The notes: generated by a model not told the origin, from the sequence alone. Positions 1,204-11,791 are shown, counted from the stretch's first letter. The stretch: 15,065 nt of DNA from Candidatus Abyssobacteria bacterium SURF_5 (GCA_003598085.1 QZKU01000021.1:1-15065), one strand, 5' to 3'. Numbers and translations are program-made.

Positions 1204-2871
1204 TCAGGATTTTGCGTGCAGCGTTTCGGGTTTTTCGAGGAGCTCCCTCAGCTTGATGAGGAACTGCGTTCCGACGTAGCCGTCGACGACCCGGTGATCG
1301 CACGAGAGCGTGACGCGCATGAGGTTTTTCGGCCGGACTTGTCCGTCGACGACAACCGGTTCCTGCGCGAGCGCGCCGACTGCCAGGATCGCGCTCTGGC
1401 CGGGATCGATGATGGCGGTGAAATGGTCGATGCCGAACATGCCGAGATTGGAGACGGTGAAGGTCGCATTGGAGTACTCGTCGGGGCGCAGTTTCCTTTT
1501 GCGCGCGCGCTCGGCCTTGTCGCGCGCCTCGCGGGCGATGTCGGCGGCGGATTTGCGGTTCGCGTCCATGATGACGGGCACCACCAGTCCGTCGGGTGTT
1601 GCGGTCGCGATTCCGACGTTGATGCGCTTGTTGACGCGTACTTTCTCCTCGACGAAGGTGGAATTGACTTCCGGCACTTCCTCGAGCGCGAGGGCGGACG
1701 CTTTGACGATCAGGTCGTTATAACTGATTTTCTCCTCGTCCTTTTTGCCCTCGTTCAGTTTCTTGCGGAGCTCGACCGCGGCGTCCATGTCGATTGTCAT
1801 GTTCAGGTAGAAATGGGGGATGGTCTGCTTGCTGAGGGTCATGCGGCGCGCGATGGTTTTACGCATCAAGCTAAGTTCCTGGAATTCCTCGCCGCGCTCG
1901 TTGCAGCGGCGCGCGACATAGGCTTTGACATCGGTTTCGCGGATTCTGCCGTCGATGCCGGTTCCCCGCACCTCTTCGAGGTCGACCCCCTCTCGCTCGG
2001 CCAGGACGACGGCGAGAGGAGTCGCGCGCACTTCCCGCGCTTTTCGGAGCACCTCGATTTTTGCCGCGGGCCCCGCCTTTGCCTTTGCGGAGACGGCCTG
2101 TTCGATGTCGCGCTTGACGATTTCGCCGCCGGGGCCGGTGCCCGTGATCTGGGAGAGGTCGATGTCGTGCTTCTGAGCGAGTTCGCGGGCGAGCGGCGAG
2201 ACGGTTGCCTTTCCGGGGGCGCGTCTCGCGACGAATTTATCGATCGCGGTGCGCTGATCCATGTGAATGCTGACCGCCGGCTCCGGCCTGCGCGGCTTCT
2301 CTTTGAGTTCTTCGGCCCGCCGGCGCGCCTCCTCGGCATATTCTTTTCGGCGCTCCTCTTCTTCCCGCCGGTACCTCTCTTCTTCTTTTCGTTCTTCCTT
2401 TTTTCTTCTCTGTTCTTCCTCGCGCTTCCGTTTTTCCTCTTCGGTCGCTCGTTTTGCTTTCTCCTTCTCGGGGGCTTCGGCTTTTGCTTCTTCTTCCAGA
2501 ATCTCCTCGACGGCGGCGGATTCCTCCGGTTTTTCTTCTTCCTCCGCTTTCTCCGCTCGAGGCGGTCGTTCCGGTTTCGCCGGGTGGGCCTCCTCGGCGG
2601 GTGCCGCCGGTTTGCGTATTCCCTTCGCCTCTTCCTTTGAGCCGATGAGGCCGATCTTTTCGCCGACCTTGATGGTTTCGCCTTCTTCGGCCGTTATCTC
2701 GATGAGGATGCCGGTGTCGAAGGCTTCGACCTCGATATCGGCTTTATCGGTCTCCACTTCAAGGAGCAGCTCGCCCTCCTTGACCGGATCGCCCACCTTT
2801 TTCAGCCATTTGATGATGCGGCCTTCTTCCATCGTATCGCTCAGACGCGGCATGATAACTTCGGCGGCCAT
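1204..2871 (-). CDS. pdhC: dihydrolipoyl acyltransferase E2 with ER/K-helix linker and two subunit-binding domains
   Basis: A 555-residue E2 component of a pyruvate-type 2-oxoacid dehydrogenase complex; it transfers acyl groups from E1 to CoA. Domains in order: biotinyl/lipoyl domain, residues 1-77, with lipoyl Lys43 in ETDKADIEVEA; a long charged segment, residues about 100-195, almost entirely Glu, Lys, Arg and Ala; a first peripheral-subunit-binding domain, about 222-258 (VSPLARELAQ...GTGPGGEIVKRD); a second one, about 282-317 (ATPLAVVLAE...GTGIDGRIRETD); and the catalytic domain, about 328-553, with the active-site motif DHRVVDG (His526, Asp530). Most bacterial E2s have one binding domain and Ala/Pro-rich flexible linkers, so both the helix and the duplicated domain are odd. 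The ATG at 2871 has an AAGGAG site about 8 bases upstream. It lies 22 bp after the OsmC-like gene. The acyl substrate (pyruvate or acetoin) is not certain. Confidence 0.93.
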   Translation of the reverse strand: MAAEVIMPRLSDTMEEGRIIKWLKKVGDPVKEGELLLEVETDKADIEVEAFDTGILIEITAEEGETIKVGEKIGLIGSKEEAKGIRKPAAPAEEAHPAKPERPPRAEKAEEEEKPEESAAVEEILEEEAKAEAPEKEKAKRATEEEKRKREEEQRRKKEERKEEERYRREEEERRKEYAEEARRRAEELKEKPRRPEPAVSIHMDQRTAIDKFVARRAPGKATVSPLARELAQKHDIDLSQITGTGPGGEIVKRDIEQAVSAKAKAGPAAKIEVLRKAREVRATPLAVVLAEREGVDLEEVRGTGIDGRIRETDVKAYVARRCNERGEEFQELSLMRKTIARRMTLSKQTIPHFYLNMTIDMDAAVELRKKLNEGKKDEEKISYNDLIVKASALALEEVPEVNSTFVEEKVRVNKRINVGIATATPDGLVVPVIMDANRKSAADIAREARDKAERARKRKLRPDEYSNATFTVSNLGMFGIDHFTAIIDPGQSAILAVGALAQEPVVVDGQVRPKNLMRVTLSCDHRVVDGYVGTQFLIKLRELLEKPETLHAKS

Positions 2872-2893: not shown

Positions 2894-3322
2894 CTAGTCG
2901 AACACTTCTATGCTGTCCTCGATTGCAGGCTTCGACATGATCGTTCTGTGAACCGGACATTTTTTCGCAATCTCCAGCAGGCGGTTCTTTTGCTCATCGG
3001 TGATGTCCCCTCTGATCGTGATCTTGCGCGTAATCTTCTCGAGCCGCCTTTCCTCTTCCGTACAGTCGACGCAGTCGTCGCGGTAGGTTCGCTGGTGGTC
3101 GAGCTCGACGCTGACGGTTTCGATCGGGATTTTCTTTCTCTCGGCGTACATGAGCAGCGTCATCGCGGTGCACGCGCCGAGAGCGCTCAGAAGAAGATCG
3201 TACGGATTAGGGCCGAGGCCGTCGCCCTCGCCCATGGGTTCATCAACAATGAAGGAGTGTGGGTATGCGATCACCTGGTGCTGGAGGTTTTCGAGGTAGC
3301 GGACGGTGACTTTATTTCCCAT
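2894..3322 (-). CDS. OsmC/Ohr-family thiol peroxidase-like protein inside the dehydrogenase operon
   Basis: A 142-residue OsmC-family protein. These enzymes reduce organic hydroperoxides through a Cys pair in the cytoplasm. Both conserved cysteines are present: Cys51 in SALGACTAMTL and Cys122 in KKCPVHRT. A further CxxC (Cys84, Cys87 in RDDCVDC) is a feature of one OsmC-like subfamily and could be structural or redox-active. The start at 3322 (MGNKVTV) has AAAGGA about 8 bases upstream. A longer frame to 3391 would add 23 residues that do not look like the family. It lies between E1-beta (109 bp gap) and E2 (22 bp gap) on the same strand. Ohr and OsmC are known to be re-reduced by lipoylated proteins and dihydrolipoamide dehydrogenase, so a functional link to the neighbouring lipoyl-E2 is an attractive inference, not shown here. 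Confidence 0.9.
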   Translation of the reverse strand: MGNKVTVRYLENLQHQVIAYPHSFIVDEPMGEGDGLGPNPYDLLLSALGACTAMTLLMYAERKKIPIETVSVELDHQRTYRDDCVDCTEEERRLEKITRKITIRGDITDEQKNRLLEIAKKCPVHRTIMSKPAIEDSIEVFD

Positions 3323-3368
3323 GGCCGGTCCTTTCGCTTTGGGGTTAGAATCTTCCTCATGACATATG

Positions 3369-3382
3369 CCTTTGCGCAAAGG
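3369..3382. promoter_or_regulatory. 14-bp perfect palindrome between E1-beta and the OsmC-like gene
   Basis: CCTTTGCGCAAAGG is perfectly self-complementary and lies in the 109-bp gap upstream of the OsmC-like gene. It could be an operator that allows separate control of that gene, or a processing hairpin. No convincing -35/-10 pair was found beside it. Confidence 0.3.
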
Positions 3383-3431
3383 TGATGACACGGCTTTGAA
3401 GAGTCTGTTCCTGTCGGTGATTCTTACCCGG

Positions 3432-4418
3432 CTAAGCGCGGGTCAACATCTTTTTTACGGCGAAGACCACGTCGTCAACCTGTGGGATGGCGCTGTGCTC
3501 GAGGTGCTTCGAGTACGGCATCGGTATGTCGGCGCCCGCGACTCGCACAACGGGCGCATCGAGGCTGTAGAAGGCGCGCTCGCCGATCGAGGCGGCGATT
3601 TCGGCGCCGACTCCGCCGGTGCGGCAATCTTCCTCGACAATGACGAGCCGCCCGGTTTTCTCGACCGACCTGGCGACGGCGTTGATGTCAAACGGCTTCA
3701 GCGTGCGCGGGTCTACGACCTCCACGCTTATACCGTCTTCCTTTTCGAGTTTTTCAGCCGCCTCGAGCGAGATATGCACCATGCGGGACCACGTCACGAT
3801 GGTGAGATCGCTGCCTTCGCGCTTGATGTCTGCCACTCCGAGCGGAACCAGATAATCCTCGACATCGGGGACCTCACCCTGCATTCCGTAGAGGGCTTCA
3901 TGTTCGAGGAAGATGACCGGATCGTCGTCGCGGACCGAGCTCTTGAGCAGGCCCTTTGCGTCGGCCGGCGTGGACGGCATGACCACTTTCAGGCCGGGCG
4001 TGTGCACGAAATGGGCCTCGAGGTTCTGTGAGTGCTGTGCGCCCAGTTGATGGCCGGAGCCGCCGGGAGCGCGAATCACCATCGGAATCGGGAATTGGCC
4101 GCCCGACATATAGTAGAATTTTGCGGCGTGGTTGATGATCTGGTCCATCGCGAGGAGCGAGAAGTTGACGGTCATGAGCTCGACGATCGGTCTGAGGCCC
4201 GCCATCGCCGCCCCGATACCCGCGCCGACTATCACTTCTTCGGAAATGGGGGTATCAATGACTCGATCCGGGCCGAACTCCTCGAGCAGTTTTGCCGTCA
4301 CCCTGTAGGAGCCCCCCCACACGCCCACTTCTTCGCCCATGAGGAAGACATTCGGGTCGCGCCGCATTTCCTCCGCGTGCGCGTCTCCAAGCGCTTCTCG
4401 ATATCGCATCACAGCCAT
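3432..4418 (-). CDS. pdhB: 2-oxoacid (pyruvate) dehydrogenase E1 beta subunit
   Basis: A 328-residue E1-beta (transketolase-like pyrimidine-binding plus C-terminal domain). With E1-alpha it forms an alpha2beta2 thiamine-diphosphate decarboxylase that loads acyl groups onto E2. Diagnostic stretches are FLMGEEVGVWGG (26-35), DTPISEE (55-61, Glu60 being the ThDP-activating glutamate), IRAPGGSGHQLGAQHSQ (115-131) and, near the C-terminus, PMPYSKHLE. I chose MAVMRYREAL at 4418. It begins one base after the E1-alpha stop and has GGGGA upstream within the E1-alpha tail, consistent with translational coupling. An upstream ATG at 4436 (MRGNSD) and one at 4487 are possible but overlap E1-alpha. Close relatives include acetoin dehydrogenase AcoB, so the substrate is inferred. 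Confidence 0.93.
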   Translation of the reverse strand: MAVMRYREALGDAHAEEMRRDPNVFLMGEEVGVWGGSYRVTAKLLEEFGPDRVIDTPISEEVIVGAGIGAAMAGLRPIVELMTVNFSLLAMDQIINHAAKFYYMSGGQFPIPMVIRAPGGSGHQLGAQHSQNLEAHFVHTPGLKVVMPSTPADAKGLLKSSVRDDDPVIFLEHEALYGMQGEVPDVEDYLVPLGVADIKREGSDLTIVTWSRMVHISLEAAEKLEKEDGISVEVVDPRTLKPFDINAVARSVEKTGRLVIVEEDCRTGGVGAEIAASIGERAFYSLDAPVVRVAGADIPMPYSKHLEHSAIPQVDDVVFAVKKMLTRA

Positions 4419-4419
4419 G

Positions 4420-5382
4420 TCAGAATTTCCCCGCATATACGTGTTCGCACACGGCCGCGTCGGGCGGAAATTCGGATGCGTCGGCAAACTCGATCGCGTC
4501 GTTCACGATTTTTTCCACCTCGTCGGCAATCGCTTTATCCGCTTCATCGCTGAGGATGCCGTCGGCCTTCAATTTGTTCCGCATCCGGATGATCGGATCG
4601 CGCAGTTTCCATTGTTCCACTTCTTCTTTTGTGCGGTAGACCTCCGGATCGGCCACTGAATGGCCGCGGAAGCGGTACGTCTTCGTTTCGATCATCTCCG
4701 GCCGTTTGCGCGTGCGGACACGTTCCGCCGCCGCTTTCGTCGCCTCGTACACCTCGATAACATCCATACCGTCGATGATCTGCCAGTCCATGTTGTAGCA
4801 GGCGGCGCGCTTGCCGAGGTCTTCAATCGAGGAGGCCTTCTCCACCGGGGTCCCCATGCCATAGCGGTTGTTCTCGCAGAAGAAGAGAACCGGCAGGTGC
4901 CACAGCGATGCGAGGTTGAAAGACTCGTGAAAGGCGCCCTCGTTGACGGCGCCGTCGCCGAACATGCACAACACTATCTGGTCACCTTTTCGGTAGTTGA
5001 CGGCAAGACCCGCCCCGACCGCGATCGGCAGGTTTCCGGCAACGATCGCGTTGCCGCCCAGGAATCTCTTTTCCCGGCTGAAGATGTGCATCGAACCGCC
5101 CTTGCCCTTCGAGATGCCCGTCTCCTTTCCGAACAATTCGGCCATGATCAATTTCGGCTCGATCCCCTTCATGAGGGCCTGGCCGTGCTCGCGGTAGCCG
5201 GTGGTCACGTAATCATCGTCGCGGATAGCGCTTATGGCGCCGACGCCGTTGGCCTCTTCGCCTATATATAAATGAAGAAAGCCCGATATTTTGGCTCGCT
5301 GGTACATTTGCCCGGCTTTCTCCTCAAACCGGCGTATGAGCACCATTTTCCTGTACAGATCGATTTTCAACTGGTCATTCAA
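4420..5382 (-). CDS. pdhA: 2-oxoacid (pyruvate) dehydrogenase E1 alpha subunit, TTG start
   Basis: A 320-residue E1-alpha that binds thiamine diphosphate. The ThDP motif is clear: GDGAVNEG at 142-149 and, about 26 residues on, ENN at 170-172. The family signatures YREHGQAL (63-70) and GKGGSMH (93-99) are also present. The length matches the short heterotetrameric PDH and acetoin dehydrogenase type. The start codon is TTG at 5382, preceded by a very strong GGGGGAGGAG site about 5 bases upstream. The nearby ATG (5378) is out of frame. It is the first gene of the minus-strand cluster E1-alpha, E1-beta, OsmC-like, E2. No E3 gene is in the window, so E3 must come from elsewhere. PDH is more likely than acetoin dehydrogenase because no acetoin regulator is nearby, but the evidence is weak. 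Confidence 0.93.
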   Translation of the reverse strand: MNDQLKIDLYRKMVLIRRFEEKAGQMYQRAKISGFLHLYIGEEANGVGAISAIRDDDYVTTGYREHGQALMKGIEPKLIMAELFGKETGISKGKGGSMHIFSREKRFLGGNAIVAGNLPIAVGAGLAVNYRKGDQIVLCMFGDGAVNEGAFHESFNLASLWHLPVLFFCENNRYGMGTPVEKASSIEDLGKRAACYNMDWQIIDGMDVIEVYEATKAAAERVRTRKRPEMIETKTYRFRGHSVADPEVYRTKEEVEQWKLRDPIIRMRNKLKADGILSDEADKAIADEVEKIVNDAIEFADASEFPPDAAVCEHVYAGKF

Positions 5383-9952: not shown

Positions 9953-10777
9953 ATGGATATCAACGGAAAATGCGCCATCGTCTCGGGCGGCTCGCTGGGA
10001 ATAGGGAGAGCCATTGCGGATGAGCTCGCGAAACTCGGCGCCAATGTGTTTCTGATAGCCCGGCGCGAAGAACCGCTCGCGGCTGCGACCGAGGAATTGA
10101 AACGAGCGGCTGTGAATCCCGCGCAGAAGTTCGGGTATTATCGCGCCGATGTTTCGAACCTCGATGCTGTCATAGCGGCCGTCAAGGCGGCAGAGGCCCA
10201 GTGCGGTCCTCCGGCCGTCCTTGTCAATTCGGCCGGCTTCTCTCTGCCCGGCTACGTCGAAAAGCTGCCCGTCTCGGATATCGAAACCGAAATCAAAGTG
10301 AATTACCTGGGCACCGTTTACACGGTGAAACAGGTTGTCGGCGGCATGATCGAGAGAAAACAGGGCTGGATACTGAATATCTCGAGCCTTGCCGGCCTGA
10401 AGGGGATATTCGGATTCACCGGCTACAGCGGCTCGAAGTTCGCCGTTTTCGGATTTTCGGAGGCGCTGAGGAGCGAGCTTCGCCCTCACGGAGTCCATGT
10501 GTCGGTGCTGTGTCCGCCGGACGTCGATACGGAACGCTTCAAAAACGATACGAGAGAAAAGCCGCTGGAAAACCTGAGGATCTCCAAAGGCGCCAAGCTG
10601 ATGCACGCCGACGAAGTCGCGCGCGCGGCGATCAGAGGGATGGAGAAAGGCTCGTTCATTATCATTCCCGGCTTTTCAGGAAAGCTGCTGCACGTCGCGA
10701 ACCGATTCGTCCCCTGGCTGGTCGACATGTCTTTGAACCGTACCATCGATCAGGCGAGGAAGGAGCGGGGCCTGTAG
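9953..10777 (+). CDS. short-chain dehydrogenase resembling 3-ketodihydrosphingosine reductase
   Basis: A 274-residue classical SDR. It has the NADP-binding motif SGGSLGIGRA (11-20), Arg37/Arg38 after strand 2 (favouring NADPH), NSAG (92-95) and the catalytic set Ser145, Tyr158, Lys162 (YSGSK). The region NYLGTVY (117-123) and the stretch from GIFGFTGYS to CPPDVDTERF...REKPLEN (151-207) closely follow eukaryotic KDSR, where the equivalents are NYLGSVY, GLFGFTAYS and PPDTDTPGF...KPLE. In that family the enzyme reduces 3-ketosphinganine to sphinganine. The hydrophobic C-terminal region (about 234-256) could be membrane-associated. No serine palmitoyltransferase or ceramide synthase is in the window, so a sphingolipid role is inference; another ketoacyl lipid substrate is possible. 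The start at 9953 has GGAGAAG about 6 bases upstream; extension to 9890 would run into repeats. Confidence 0.87.
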   Translation: MDINGKCAIVSGGSLGIGRAIADELAKLGANVFLIARREEPLAAATEELKRAAVNPAQKFGYYRADVSNLDAVIAAVKAAEAQCGPPAVLVNSAGFSLPGYVEKLPVSDIETEIKVNYLGTVYTVKQVVGGMIERKQGWILNISSLAGLKGIFGFTGYSGSKFAVFGFSEALRSELRPHGVHVSVLCPPDVDTERFKNDTREKPLENLRISKGAKLMHADEVARAAIRGMEKGSFIIIPGFSGKLLHVANRFVPWLVDMSLNRTIDQARKERGL

Positions 10778-10865
10778 ATACGGATCGATCTCGCCGTGGC
10801 TGGTGAAAAAACTGCGACGACCAAAGTTTTGCCCGCCGGATTGCGTCAGGCGAGCTCGACGAAAA

Positions 10866-10883
10866 CCCGAAGGGTCGCGACCC
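10866..10883 (-). terminator. GC-rich palindromes between the convergent reductase and HEPN genes
   Basis: GGGTCGCGACCC (10872-10883) is a perfect 12-bp palindrome directly after the HEPN stop. On the minus strand an overlapping small hairpin, ACCC-TTC-GGGT, is followed by TTTCG. Either could help end the two converging transcripts. The hairpins are short, so this is tentative. Confidence 0.3.
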
Positions 10884-10884
10884 G

Positions 10885-11295
10885 TTACGTTTGACCCTTT
10901 ATTGTTGCGAGAATTTCTTTTCGCACCTTACCCGCAAGTTCGACCGCCAAGTGGGCCTCATTCGCACTCAGTTCCGGGATATCTCCGGGATATCGGATTT
11001 CGACTCCATAGGGGTTCAAAGCGCGAATGTCCTGAAGCGACTGAGCCAACGCCGGGGCGACCGGCTCCAGAAGGTCGAGAATTTCAACCAAGTCGTGTGT
11101 CTTGGGAAAGTCGATTTGGTGATAAACGAGGAAAGCTTTCAGGTATTTCTCGGCGGCCTGTTGACTGTGAAAACCCACAGCGCCGAGATATGGCGAATGC
11201 TCTGAAAGAAGGTGTTCGGCCAACCCGAAATCTTCTTCAGCTTTGGCAAGCCATTGCTTGACAAGCTGGCGCTTTGCTTGCTCAGGCGGCTTCAT
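10885..11295 (-). CDS. HEPN-domain protein, putative toxin of an MNT/HEPN pair
   Basis: A 136-residue all-helical HEPN-domain protein (PF05168 type). Signatures are WLAKAEEDFGLAEHLL (15-30), the central FHSQQAAEKYLKAFLVYH (42-59) and PKTHDLVEILDLL (64-76), all classic for HEPN proteins paired with minimal nucleotidyltransferases. In characterised pairs HEPN is the RNase-type toxin and MNT neutralises it, in some cases by AMPylating it. The canonical Rx4-6H catalytic motif is not obvious here, as in many members of this subgroup, so toxicity is not assured. The start at 11295 overlaps the end of the MNT gene by 14 bases, a typical arrangement for this pair. It ends convergent to the reductase gene. 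Confidence 0.87.
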   Translation of the reverse strand: MKPPEQAKRQLVKQWLAKAEEDFGLAEHLLSEHSPYLGAVGFHSQQAAEKYLKAFLVYHQIDFPKTHDLVEILDLLEPVAPALAQSLQDIRALNPYGVEIRYPGDIPELSANEAHLAVELAGKVRKEILATIKGQT

Positions 11296-11602
11296 AGATT
11301 ACCCTGCCCGATCTGTTGGCGGGATAGGCAATTCCGCCGATGATGCTCTTGGTTTCCTCAAAACGCTCGGTCGGCATCACAATAACGTCGAAAGGATAGC
11401 CGAGTCCTCGGAGAGCATCACGCAGGCGCACACTTTCCTCGCGAACGTTGCCCGGCGAATCCTCCAGGATGAGGAGGTCAATATCACTGTCGCGGGTCAT
11501 CCCGCCTGTGCTCGCGGAACCGAACAGAATAATGCGGTTCGGGCTGGCGATAGCCAATATTCGCCGTACGATCTCGTTGACCAGCTTTTCGTCTATGCCC
11601 AC
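11282..11602 (-). CDS. minimal nucleotidyltransferase (MNT-domain) antitoxin-type protein, GTG start
   Basis: A 106-residue MNT protein of the DNA polymerase beta superfamily. The nucleotidyltransferase motif is ILFGSASTGGMTRDSDIDLLIL (GS...SDxD; the two Asp bind metal), followed by DVIVM with a third acidic residue. I chose GTG at 11602 (VGIDEKLVNEIVRRI). Most MNT proteins begin with this short helix, GAGGG lies about 5 bases upstream, and a promoter at 11639-11667 would start transcription near 11632. Translation from the first ATG (11779) or from 11659 would begin upstream of or inside that promoter and add unrelated residues. It is co-transcribed with the overlapping HEPN gene. In such modules MNT usually acts as the antitoxin. 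Confidence 0.87.
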   Translation of the reverse strand: MGIDEKLVNEIVRRILAIASPNRIILFGSASTGGMTRDSDIDLLILEDSPGNVREESVRLRDALRGLGYPFDVIVMPTERFEETKSIIGGIAYPANRSGRVIYEAA

Positions 11603-11638
11603 GGTTCCCTCGATTCTTATTTGTCCCACCTTTTTCTT

Positions 11639-11667
11639 ATCATACACAGAACATATCATGGAGTCAA
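11639..11667 (-). promoter_or_regulatory. sigma70 promoter of the MNT/HEPN operon
   Basis: On the minus strand TTGACT (11662-11667) and TATGAT (11639-11644) are separated by exactly 17 bases, each a 5/6 consensus match. The predicted leader to the GTG start at 11602 is about 30 bases. This placement decides in favour of the short MNT start. Confidence 0.6.
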
Positions 11668-11791
11668 AGAAACTGATAGGATTCGAAGATCGAAAAATCT
11701 GGTGGCGAAGAACGTCAGCGAACTCAATGATAGATTCGGACGAATTGATCACGGTTCGGCTTAGAAGAGCGCCATCCAATACGTTCTTGTA

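What the first reader, a model, noticed from the sequence alone, without database searches (positions are those of the whole stretch)
2894..5382. OsmC-like peroxidase embedded between E1-beta and the lipoylated E2
Seen: four minus-strand genes in the order E1-alpha, E1-beta, OsmC-like, E2, with a 22-bp gap between OsmC-like and E2. Known: Ohr/OsmC peroxidases can be recycled by lipoylated E2 proteins and dihydrolipoamide dehydrogenase rather than by thioredoxin. Inference: the operon may encode a dedicated pair in which E2-bound dihydrolipoamide reduces the peroxidase, coupling pyruvate oxidation to peroxide removal or protecting the lipoyl groups.
Basis: partly seen in the sequence, partly recalled or inferred. 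Interest (0 to 1): 0.62.

Follow-up and report, generated by a model that had tools for sequence, protein, structure and literature searches.

The report
OsmC-like thiol protein in PDH operon
In two related bacteria the genes for the pyruvate-burning enzyme complex include a small cysteine protein of the OsmC fold, and a cousin of that protein sits in the lipoate-making gene cluster of an unrelated bacterial family, which suggests (but does not prove) that this little-understood protein type works hand in hand with the complex's swinging lipoate arm.

Summary
In detail: on the minus strand lie E1-alpha, E1-beta, an OsmC-fold protein (142 aa, Cys51/Cys122) and a lipoyl E2, with 22 bp between OsmC and E2. 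The order is not unique to this genome. A second genus of the same family keeps it (OsmC 79% identical, dN/dS about 0.12) although its flanking genes differ. It is rare: none of 67 other E1-beta loci from about 60 genomes has an OsmC gene nearby. The label 'OsmC peroxidase' is not supported: Tyr41 stands where Ohr/OsmC have the catalytic Glu, no Arg is conserved in the Arg loop, and the closest characterised relative, an OsmC-esterase, showed no peroxidase activity in a published assay. A redox-active thiol is supported: five close homologs have in-frame UGA (selenocysteine) exactly at Cys51. The lipoyl link gains support from an unrelated family, where a homolog is fixed in a lipoate-assembly operon (LipS2 adjacent in 24 of 24 loci). 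Best reading: a thiol redox partner of lipoyl carriers, reduced by dihydrolipoamide and dihydrolipoyl dehydrogenase (encoded elsewhere); its substrate, peroxide or another oxidant, is unknown. All of this is inference from sequence; no activity was measured.

The parts
4420..5382 (-). E1-alpha of a pyruvate dehydrogenase-type complex (320 aa, TTG start in this reading)
   Evidence: PF00676 1.4e-93; TIGR03182 443.6 bits, above cut-off 393.85
3432..4418 (-). E1-beta (328 aa)
   Evidence: PF02779, PF02780; NF006667 456 bits, above cut-off 321
3323..3431 (-). 109-bp spacer between E1-beta and OsmC; holds the palindrome CCTTTGCGCAAAGG (about 3369-3382), like the longer CCCCCTTTGCAAAGGGGG repeats in the same spacer of G001
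   Evidence: sequence; G001 spacer; no minus-strand terminator found here
2894..3322 (-). OsmC-fold protein, 142 aa, in the same subgroup as the C-terminal domains of OsmC-esterases
   Evidence: PF02566 76 bits; AlphaFold pLDDT 89 and OsmC/Ohr fold, Z 9.4-12.5; phmmer best PDB match 9wo1 5e-39; tree
3170..3172 (-). Cys51 codon (TGC), equivalent of the peroxidatic Cys; selenocysteine (TGA) in five close homologs
   Evidence: invariant in 34 of 34 rows with Sec counted as Cys
2957..2959 (-). Cys122 codon (TGT), equivalent of the resolving Cys, in the CPVHRT motif
   Evidence: invariant in 34 of 34
3062..3073 (-). Cys84-x-x-Cys87, extra CxxC motif of this subgroup
   Evidence: each Cys in 29 of 34 aligned homologs; absent in the f12 homologs
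1204..2871 (-). E2, dihydrolipoyllysine acetyltransferase type, 555 aa
   Evidence: PF00364, PF02817 x2, PF00198
2734..2754 (-). Lipoylation motif ETDKADI, Lys43 (residues 40-46)
   Evidence: PF00364 residues 4-74
2278..2484 (-). Highly charged E/K/R-rich stretch of the linker (residues 130-198); E, K, R and D make 59% of linker residues 76-220
2092..2202 (-). First peripheral-subunit-binding domain (residues 224-260)
   Evidence: PF02817 2.8e-23 for the protein, 2 stretches
1915..2025 (-). Second peripheral-subunit-binding domain (residues 283-319)
   Evidence: PF02817 second stretch; same doubling in G001

Best explanation
The OsmC-like protein is a thiol redox partner of the lipoyl arm of this pyruvate dehydrogenase-type complex. 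Cys51 is attacked or oxidised by its substrate, a disulfide forms with Cys122, and dihydrolipoamide on E2, kept reduced by E1 turnover or by dihydrolipoyl dehydrogenase (encoded elsewhere) plus NADH, reduces it back. It either removes an oxidant close to the complex or keeps the lipoyl group in usable form. Shown here: the gene order, its recurrence in a second genus, the predicted OsmC/Ohr fold, the invariant Cys pair, Cys/Sec exchange at Cys51, and a homolog fixed in a lipoate-assembly operon elsewhere. Inferred: the electron route, the direct contact with the lipoyl domain and the role. Unknown: the substrate; the Ohr/OsmC peroxide site is not conserved, so peroxide is only one candidate.
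For: Gene order kept in G001 with OsmC 79%, E1-beta 81%, E1-alpha 75%, E2 67% identity, OsmC dN 0.13 against dS 1.04, flanks not shared. In family f12 a homolog (29-35% identity) lies in GcvH-GcvH-LipS1-LplA-LipS2-OsmC-TilS, with LipS2 immediately upstream in 24 of 24 loci from four genera and a dihydrolipoyl dehydrogenase gene above cut-off in all five f12 genomes tested, about 13-14 kb from OsmC on the same contig in four. Sec at Cys51 in L045, L046, L047, L048, L063, SelB in G099 and G365, hairpins after the UGA. Fold matches Ohr, including dihydrolipoamide-bound entries 6ebg and 6ebd. Precedents: Ohr reduced by lipoylated proteins (Cussiol 2010, as described in PMC8945050); Trichomonas OsmC reduced through lipoylated H protein and L protein (PMC7946386).
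Against: The E1-OsmC-E2 order is known from two genera only; no OsmC stands near 67 E1-beta loci outside the family, nor near six other E1/E2 operons within it. Most homologs of this subgroup are esterase fusions or lie beside unrelated genes. The nearest characterised relative had no peroxidase activity with DTT (PMC5113044). The f12 homologs lack the CxxC, form a separate clade and are distant, so their role may differ. Other LipS1/LipS2 clusters, including one in f12 (G013), lack OsmC.
Confidence: 0.55

Rival explanations
1. It is a working lipoyl-dependent hydroperoxide reductase in the strict Ohr/OsmC sense, using other residues in place of the Arg/Glu pair.
For: OsmC/Ohr fold with the Cys pair in the right places; Sec at Cys51 in relatives; conserved His22, Asp27, Glu28 and Tyr41 could form another active site.
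Against: Catalytic Glu replaced by Tyr (30 of 34 rows), no conserved Arg in the loop; EstRM inactive on H2O2 and cumene hydroperoxide with DTT (PMC5113044); no haem-copper oxidase found in this genome, so aerobic peroxide stress may be small.
Confidence: 0.25
2. It handles sulfur or carbonyl adducts of the lipoyl group (persulfides, mixed disulfides, stalled acyl thioesters): a lipoyl maintenance factor rather than an oxidant scavenger.
For: A homolog sits in an operon of lipoyl synthases, ligase and lipoyl carriers rather than of an oxidase or peroxide regulon; subgroup fused to esterases elsewhere.
Against: No direct evidence for any such chemistry; most members are not near lipoyl genes.
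Confidence: 0.2
3. A hitch-hiker: the gene was inserted between E1-beta and E2 in the ancestor of two genera and is only co-transcribed, with a function unrelated to lipoyl groups.
For: Only two genera carry the arrangement; spacers are long and hold repeats in G001; homologs elsewhere neighbour Lon, pirin, lactonase-like and other genes.
Against: Four-gene order kept while the flanks changed; purifying selection; separate lipoyl-operon link in f12.
Confidence: 0.25

Closest known systems
C-terminal OsmC domain of OsmC-esterases (EstRM and relatives, PMC5113044; PDB 9wo1)
   Same: Nearest sequence relatives (9wo1: 5e-39 with the single sequence, 7.8e-55 with the profile); same Cys pair, CxxC and CPVHRT motifs
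   Different: Here a free-standing protein inside a PDH operon, not fused to an alpha/beta hydrolase
Ohr and OsmC lipoyl-dependent peroxidases
   Same: Fold and positions of the two Cys (Z about 9.4-10); proposed lipoyl reductant
   Different: Tyr41 for the catalytic Glu, no conserved Arg in the loop; about 15-20% identity
YhfA-type OsmC-like proteins
   Same: Both Cys kept, Arg and Glu lacking (as PMC8945050 describes YhfA)
   Different: On separate tree branches from most YhfA-type rows, though the split is only moderately supported
Trichomonas OsmC with glycine-decarboxylase H and L proteins (Nyvltova 2016, cited in PMC7946386 and PMC10332631)
   Same: OsmC reduced through a lipoylated carrier and dihydrolipoyl dehydrogenase
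   Different: Not an operon; sequence relation to this subgroup not tested
OsmC-like selenoproteins (UXXT family, PMC1088965; NCBIfam NF041052)
   Same: Sec at the first Cys in relatives; window protein matches NF041052 weakly
   Different: Window protein has Cys and scores 48.7 bits, under the cut-off of 95

Membership tests
OsmC/Ohr superfamily (PF02566) | Pfam match above gathering score | tested here: met
   76 bits against 27.5
OsmC/Ohr superfamily (PF02566) | OsmC/Ohr fold | tested here: met
   AF2 pLDDT 89; Z 9.4-12.5 to OsmC/Ohr structures
Ohr/OsmC lipoyl-dependent peroxidases | Two conserved Cys at the Cp and Cr positions | tested here: met
   Cys51 and Cys122, invariant in 34 of 34
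Ohr/OsmC lipoyl-dependent peroxidases | Catalytic Glu ten residues before Cp (Glu51 in XfOhr) | tested here: not met
   Tyr41 here and Tyr in 30 of 34 relatives
[quoted passage not shown]
   No Arg in residues 9-16 and none conserved in the subgroup; Arg8 in the first strand is present in only 6 of 34 rows; no residue-level structural overlay was available
Ohr/OsmC lipoyl-dependent peroxidases | Hydroperoxide reduction with lipoyl reductant | not testable with these tools
   Needs enzyme assay; nearest relative negative with DTT (PMC5113044)
OsmC-related (seleno)protein NF041052 | Score above curated cut-off | tested here: not met
   48.7 bits against 95
OsmC-esterase family | N-terminal alpha/beta hydrolase domain | tested here: not met
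   142-aa protein with the OsmC domain alone
OsmC-esterase family | OsmC domain of that subgroup (Cys pair, CxxC, CPVHRT) | tested here: met
   alignment A1
Pyruvate dehydrogenase complex operon | E1-alpha, E1-beta and E2 genes identified by family models | tested here: met
   E1-alpha TIGR03182 and E1-beta NF006667 above cut-off, E2 Pfam domains above cut-off; but the E2 equivalog TIGR01349 scores 419.6 bits, under its 445

The most novel reading that the evidence does not exclude
The OsmC-esterase type of OsmC protein, whose function is described as enigmatic, is a lipoyl-carrier partner: a Cys/Sec redox module that takes electrons from lipoylated E2 or GcvH-like proteins and acts on a substrate other than the classical Ohr hydroperoxides, recruited on its own into a PDH operon and a LipS1/LipS2 lipoate-assembly operon.
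Probability: 0.3. Interest if true: 0.72.

Novelty: new variant of a known kind. Interest (0 to 1): 0.5.

Why it matters
The OsmC domain of this subgroup is common in bacteria, yet its reductant and substrate are unknown, and the one published peroxidase test that I found used DTT. Two separate gene contexts, a PDH operon and a lipoate-assembly operon, name the likely missing partner, a lipoylated carrier with dihydrolipoyl dehydrogenase, and make the question directly testable. If right, it widens the lipoyl-to-OsmC electron route beyond Ohr and gives lipoyl arms a second job or a maintenance factor. If wrong, the order is a lineage-specific hitch-hike.

Tried and rejected
Rejected: order unique to this genome (G001 has it). 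Rejected: OsmC commonly beside E1-beta (0 of 67 loci outside the family). Rejected: conserved tight OsmC-E2 spacing (22 bp here, about 220 bp in G001). Rejected: membership in NF041052 (under cut-off). The genome-contig scan with the window protein found ten loci with homologs, none next to PDH genes. Paper searches found no report of an OsmC gene in a PDH or LipS1/LipS2 operon; the library holds open-licence papers only. The primary paper Cussiol 2010 is not held; it is cited through PMC8945050. Structural neighbours outside OsmC/Ohr (FliF and type III secretion ring domains, Z about 5.5-6.4) share part of the fold only and were not followed. A weak hit to E1-beta in L199 lies in what looks by eye like the C-terminal subunit of a split transketolase, next to an N-terminal-type subunit; it was not taken as PDH.

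Full report
Observation. The window is one complete contig (G000:C21, 15,065 bp). On the minus strand lie E1-alpha (4420-5382), E1-beta (3432-4418), an OsmC-fold gene (2894-3322) and E2 (1204-2871), each identified by Pfam/NCBIfam. The OsmC-E2 gap is 22 bp; the E1-beta/OsmC gap is 109 bp from the ATG that the relatives support. No terminator-like site on the minus strand was found inside the operon. E3 lies on another contig.

Is the order conserved? The window's family is small in the collection: three genomes, three genera. G001 (another genus) has E1-alpha, E1-beta, OsmC, E2 in the same order and strand, with 75, 81, 79 and 67% protein identity. Of the other window genes only the aminotransferase gave a hit in the 20 kb around it, at 29% identity, so the flanks changed while the four genes stayed together. 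OsmC is under purifying selection (dN 0.13, dS 1.04). The third genome, G002, has neither this operon nor this OsmC. Two further E1/E2 operons in each of the three genomes lack OsmC.

How common is it? E1-beta was searched in 290 genomes, and 67 E1-beta loci outside the family, from about 60 genomes, were read with flanks of 1.5-3.5 kb. A profile built from diverse OsmC proteins (YhfA-type included) found none in any of them. The E1-OsmC-E2 order is therefore rare and, as far as sampled, confined to one family.

What is the OsmC protein? The model (pLDDT 89) has the OsmC/Ohr fold, Z 9.4-12.5 to OsmC, Ohr and OsmC-like structures, including Ohr with dihydrolipoamide. By sequence its nearest relatives are C-terminal domains of long proteins of the OsmC-esterase type (9wo1 at 5e-39) and free-standing proteins of the same subgroup. 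In 34 aligned members Cys51 and Cys122 are invariant, His22, Asp27, Glu28 and Tyr41 nearly so. The Glu that precedes the peroxidatic Cys by ten residues in Ohr/OsmC is Tyr in 30 of 34, and no Arg is conserved in the loop where Ohr has Arg19 (roles of Arg19 and Glu51: PMC5962072). YhfA proteins lack the same two residues and their activity is unknown (PMC8945050). The full-length OsmC-esterase EstRM showed no peroxidase activity on H2O2 or cumene hydroperoxide with DTT, and the authors call the domain enigmatic (PMC5113044). So the name 'peroxidase' is not earned.

Is Cys51 a redox centre? In five close homologs (L045, L046, L047, L048, L063) and one distant one (L070) an in-frame TGA falls exactly at the Cys51 position. 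G099 and G365, which hold L048 and L047, have SelB above the family cut-off, and a hairpin follows the UGA. OsmC-like selenoproteins with a UXXT motif have been known since 2005 (PMC1088965). Cys/Sec exchange at one site is good evidence for a catalytic, redox-active thiol, though not for its substrate.

A second lipoyl context. In family f12, related to the window's genome at domain level only, a homolog (34-35% identity in G161, 29-31% in G300) lies in the order GcvH, GcvH, LipS1, LplA (with a DUF116 part), LipS2, OsmC, TilS. The LipS1 and LipS2 matches are somewhat under NCBIfam's cut-offs (221 of 230, 217 of 270 bits). A search centred on G161 found the gene in 24 of 30 f12 genomes, in four genera; in all 24 loci LipS2 is immediately upstream and TilS downstream. 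Dihydrolipoyl dehydrogenase is present in the five f12 genomes tested, 13-14 kb from OsmC on the same contig in four. LipS2 loci of other families, and of G013 within f12, lack OsmC. On the tree the PDH-linked and LipS2-linked proteins are separate clades near the base of the subgroup, so the two links may be independent, or old and lost in between; the tree does not decide.

How it most likely works. A lipoyl-tethered dithiol (E2 here, GcvH-like carriers in f12) reduces the Cys51-Cys122 disulfide, and E3 or E1 turnover re-reduces the lipoyl group. Precedents are Ohr with lipoylated proteins (Cussiol 2010, via PMC8945050) and Trichomonas OsmC with H and L proteins (PMC7946386). That route is inferred. 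The substrate is unknown: hydroperoxides remain possible, but the altered active site, the negative assay and the absence of a haem-copper oxidase hit in G000 and G001 leave room for sulfur-based oxidants or lipoyl adducts.

Known or new. Lipoyl-dependent OsmC/Ohr proteins, OsmC selenoproteins and OsmC-esterases are all described. I found no paper describing this subgroup in a PDH or LipS1/LipS2 operon, within an open-licence library. I rate it a new variant of a known kind, of moderate interest because it names a testable partner for a domain without a function.

Noticed in passing
window 1915-2202 (E2 residues 224-319): E2 carries two peripheral-subunit-binding domains. The doubling is also in G001 and in one other genome (G017, L135) among 39 E2 reading frames checked, some of them duplicates.
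   Followed up: partly
window 2278-2484 (E2 residues 130-198): The linker after the lipoyl domain is E/K/R-rich and may form a charged helix instead of the usual flexible Ala/Pro linker.
   Followed up: no
L100 3793-9071 and L195 9256-14192: Lipoate-assembly operon GcvH-GcvH-LipS1-LplA/DUF116-LipS2-OsmC in an unrelated family; LplA is joined to a DUF116-like part.
   Followed up: partly
L045, L046, L047, L048, L063, L070: OsmC-like genes with in-frame TGA at the first conserved Cys, likely selenoproteins; L063 has its TGA inside a 335-codon frame and was not examined further.
   Followed up: partly
G001:C52 spacers (L087 about 10196-10379 and 10812-11028); window 3369-3382: CCCCCTTTGCAAAGGGGG-like palindromic repeats lie in the operon spacers of G001; a short related palindrome lies in the window's E1-beta/OsmC spacer.
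   Followed up: no
G000:C144 (L091 7339-8685): Second OsmC-domain protein of this genome (448 aa, OsmC at residues 341-445), grouping with the G002 OsmC rather than with the window protein.
   Followed up: partly
window 10885-11779: Two neighbouring minus-strand ORFs that look by eye like a HEPN/nucleotidyltransferase (MNT) toxin-antitoxin pair; no family search was run on them.
   Followed up: no
L094 and L095: The Sec-containing OsmC of G365 and G099 lies beside a metallo-beta-lactamase-fold protein with weak similarity to AHL lactonases and an M20 peptidase.
   Followed up: no
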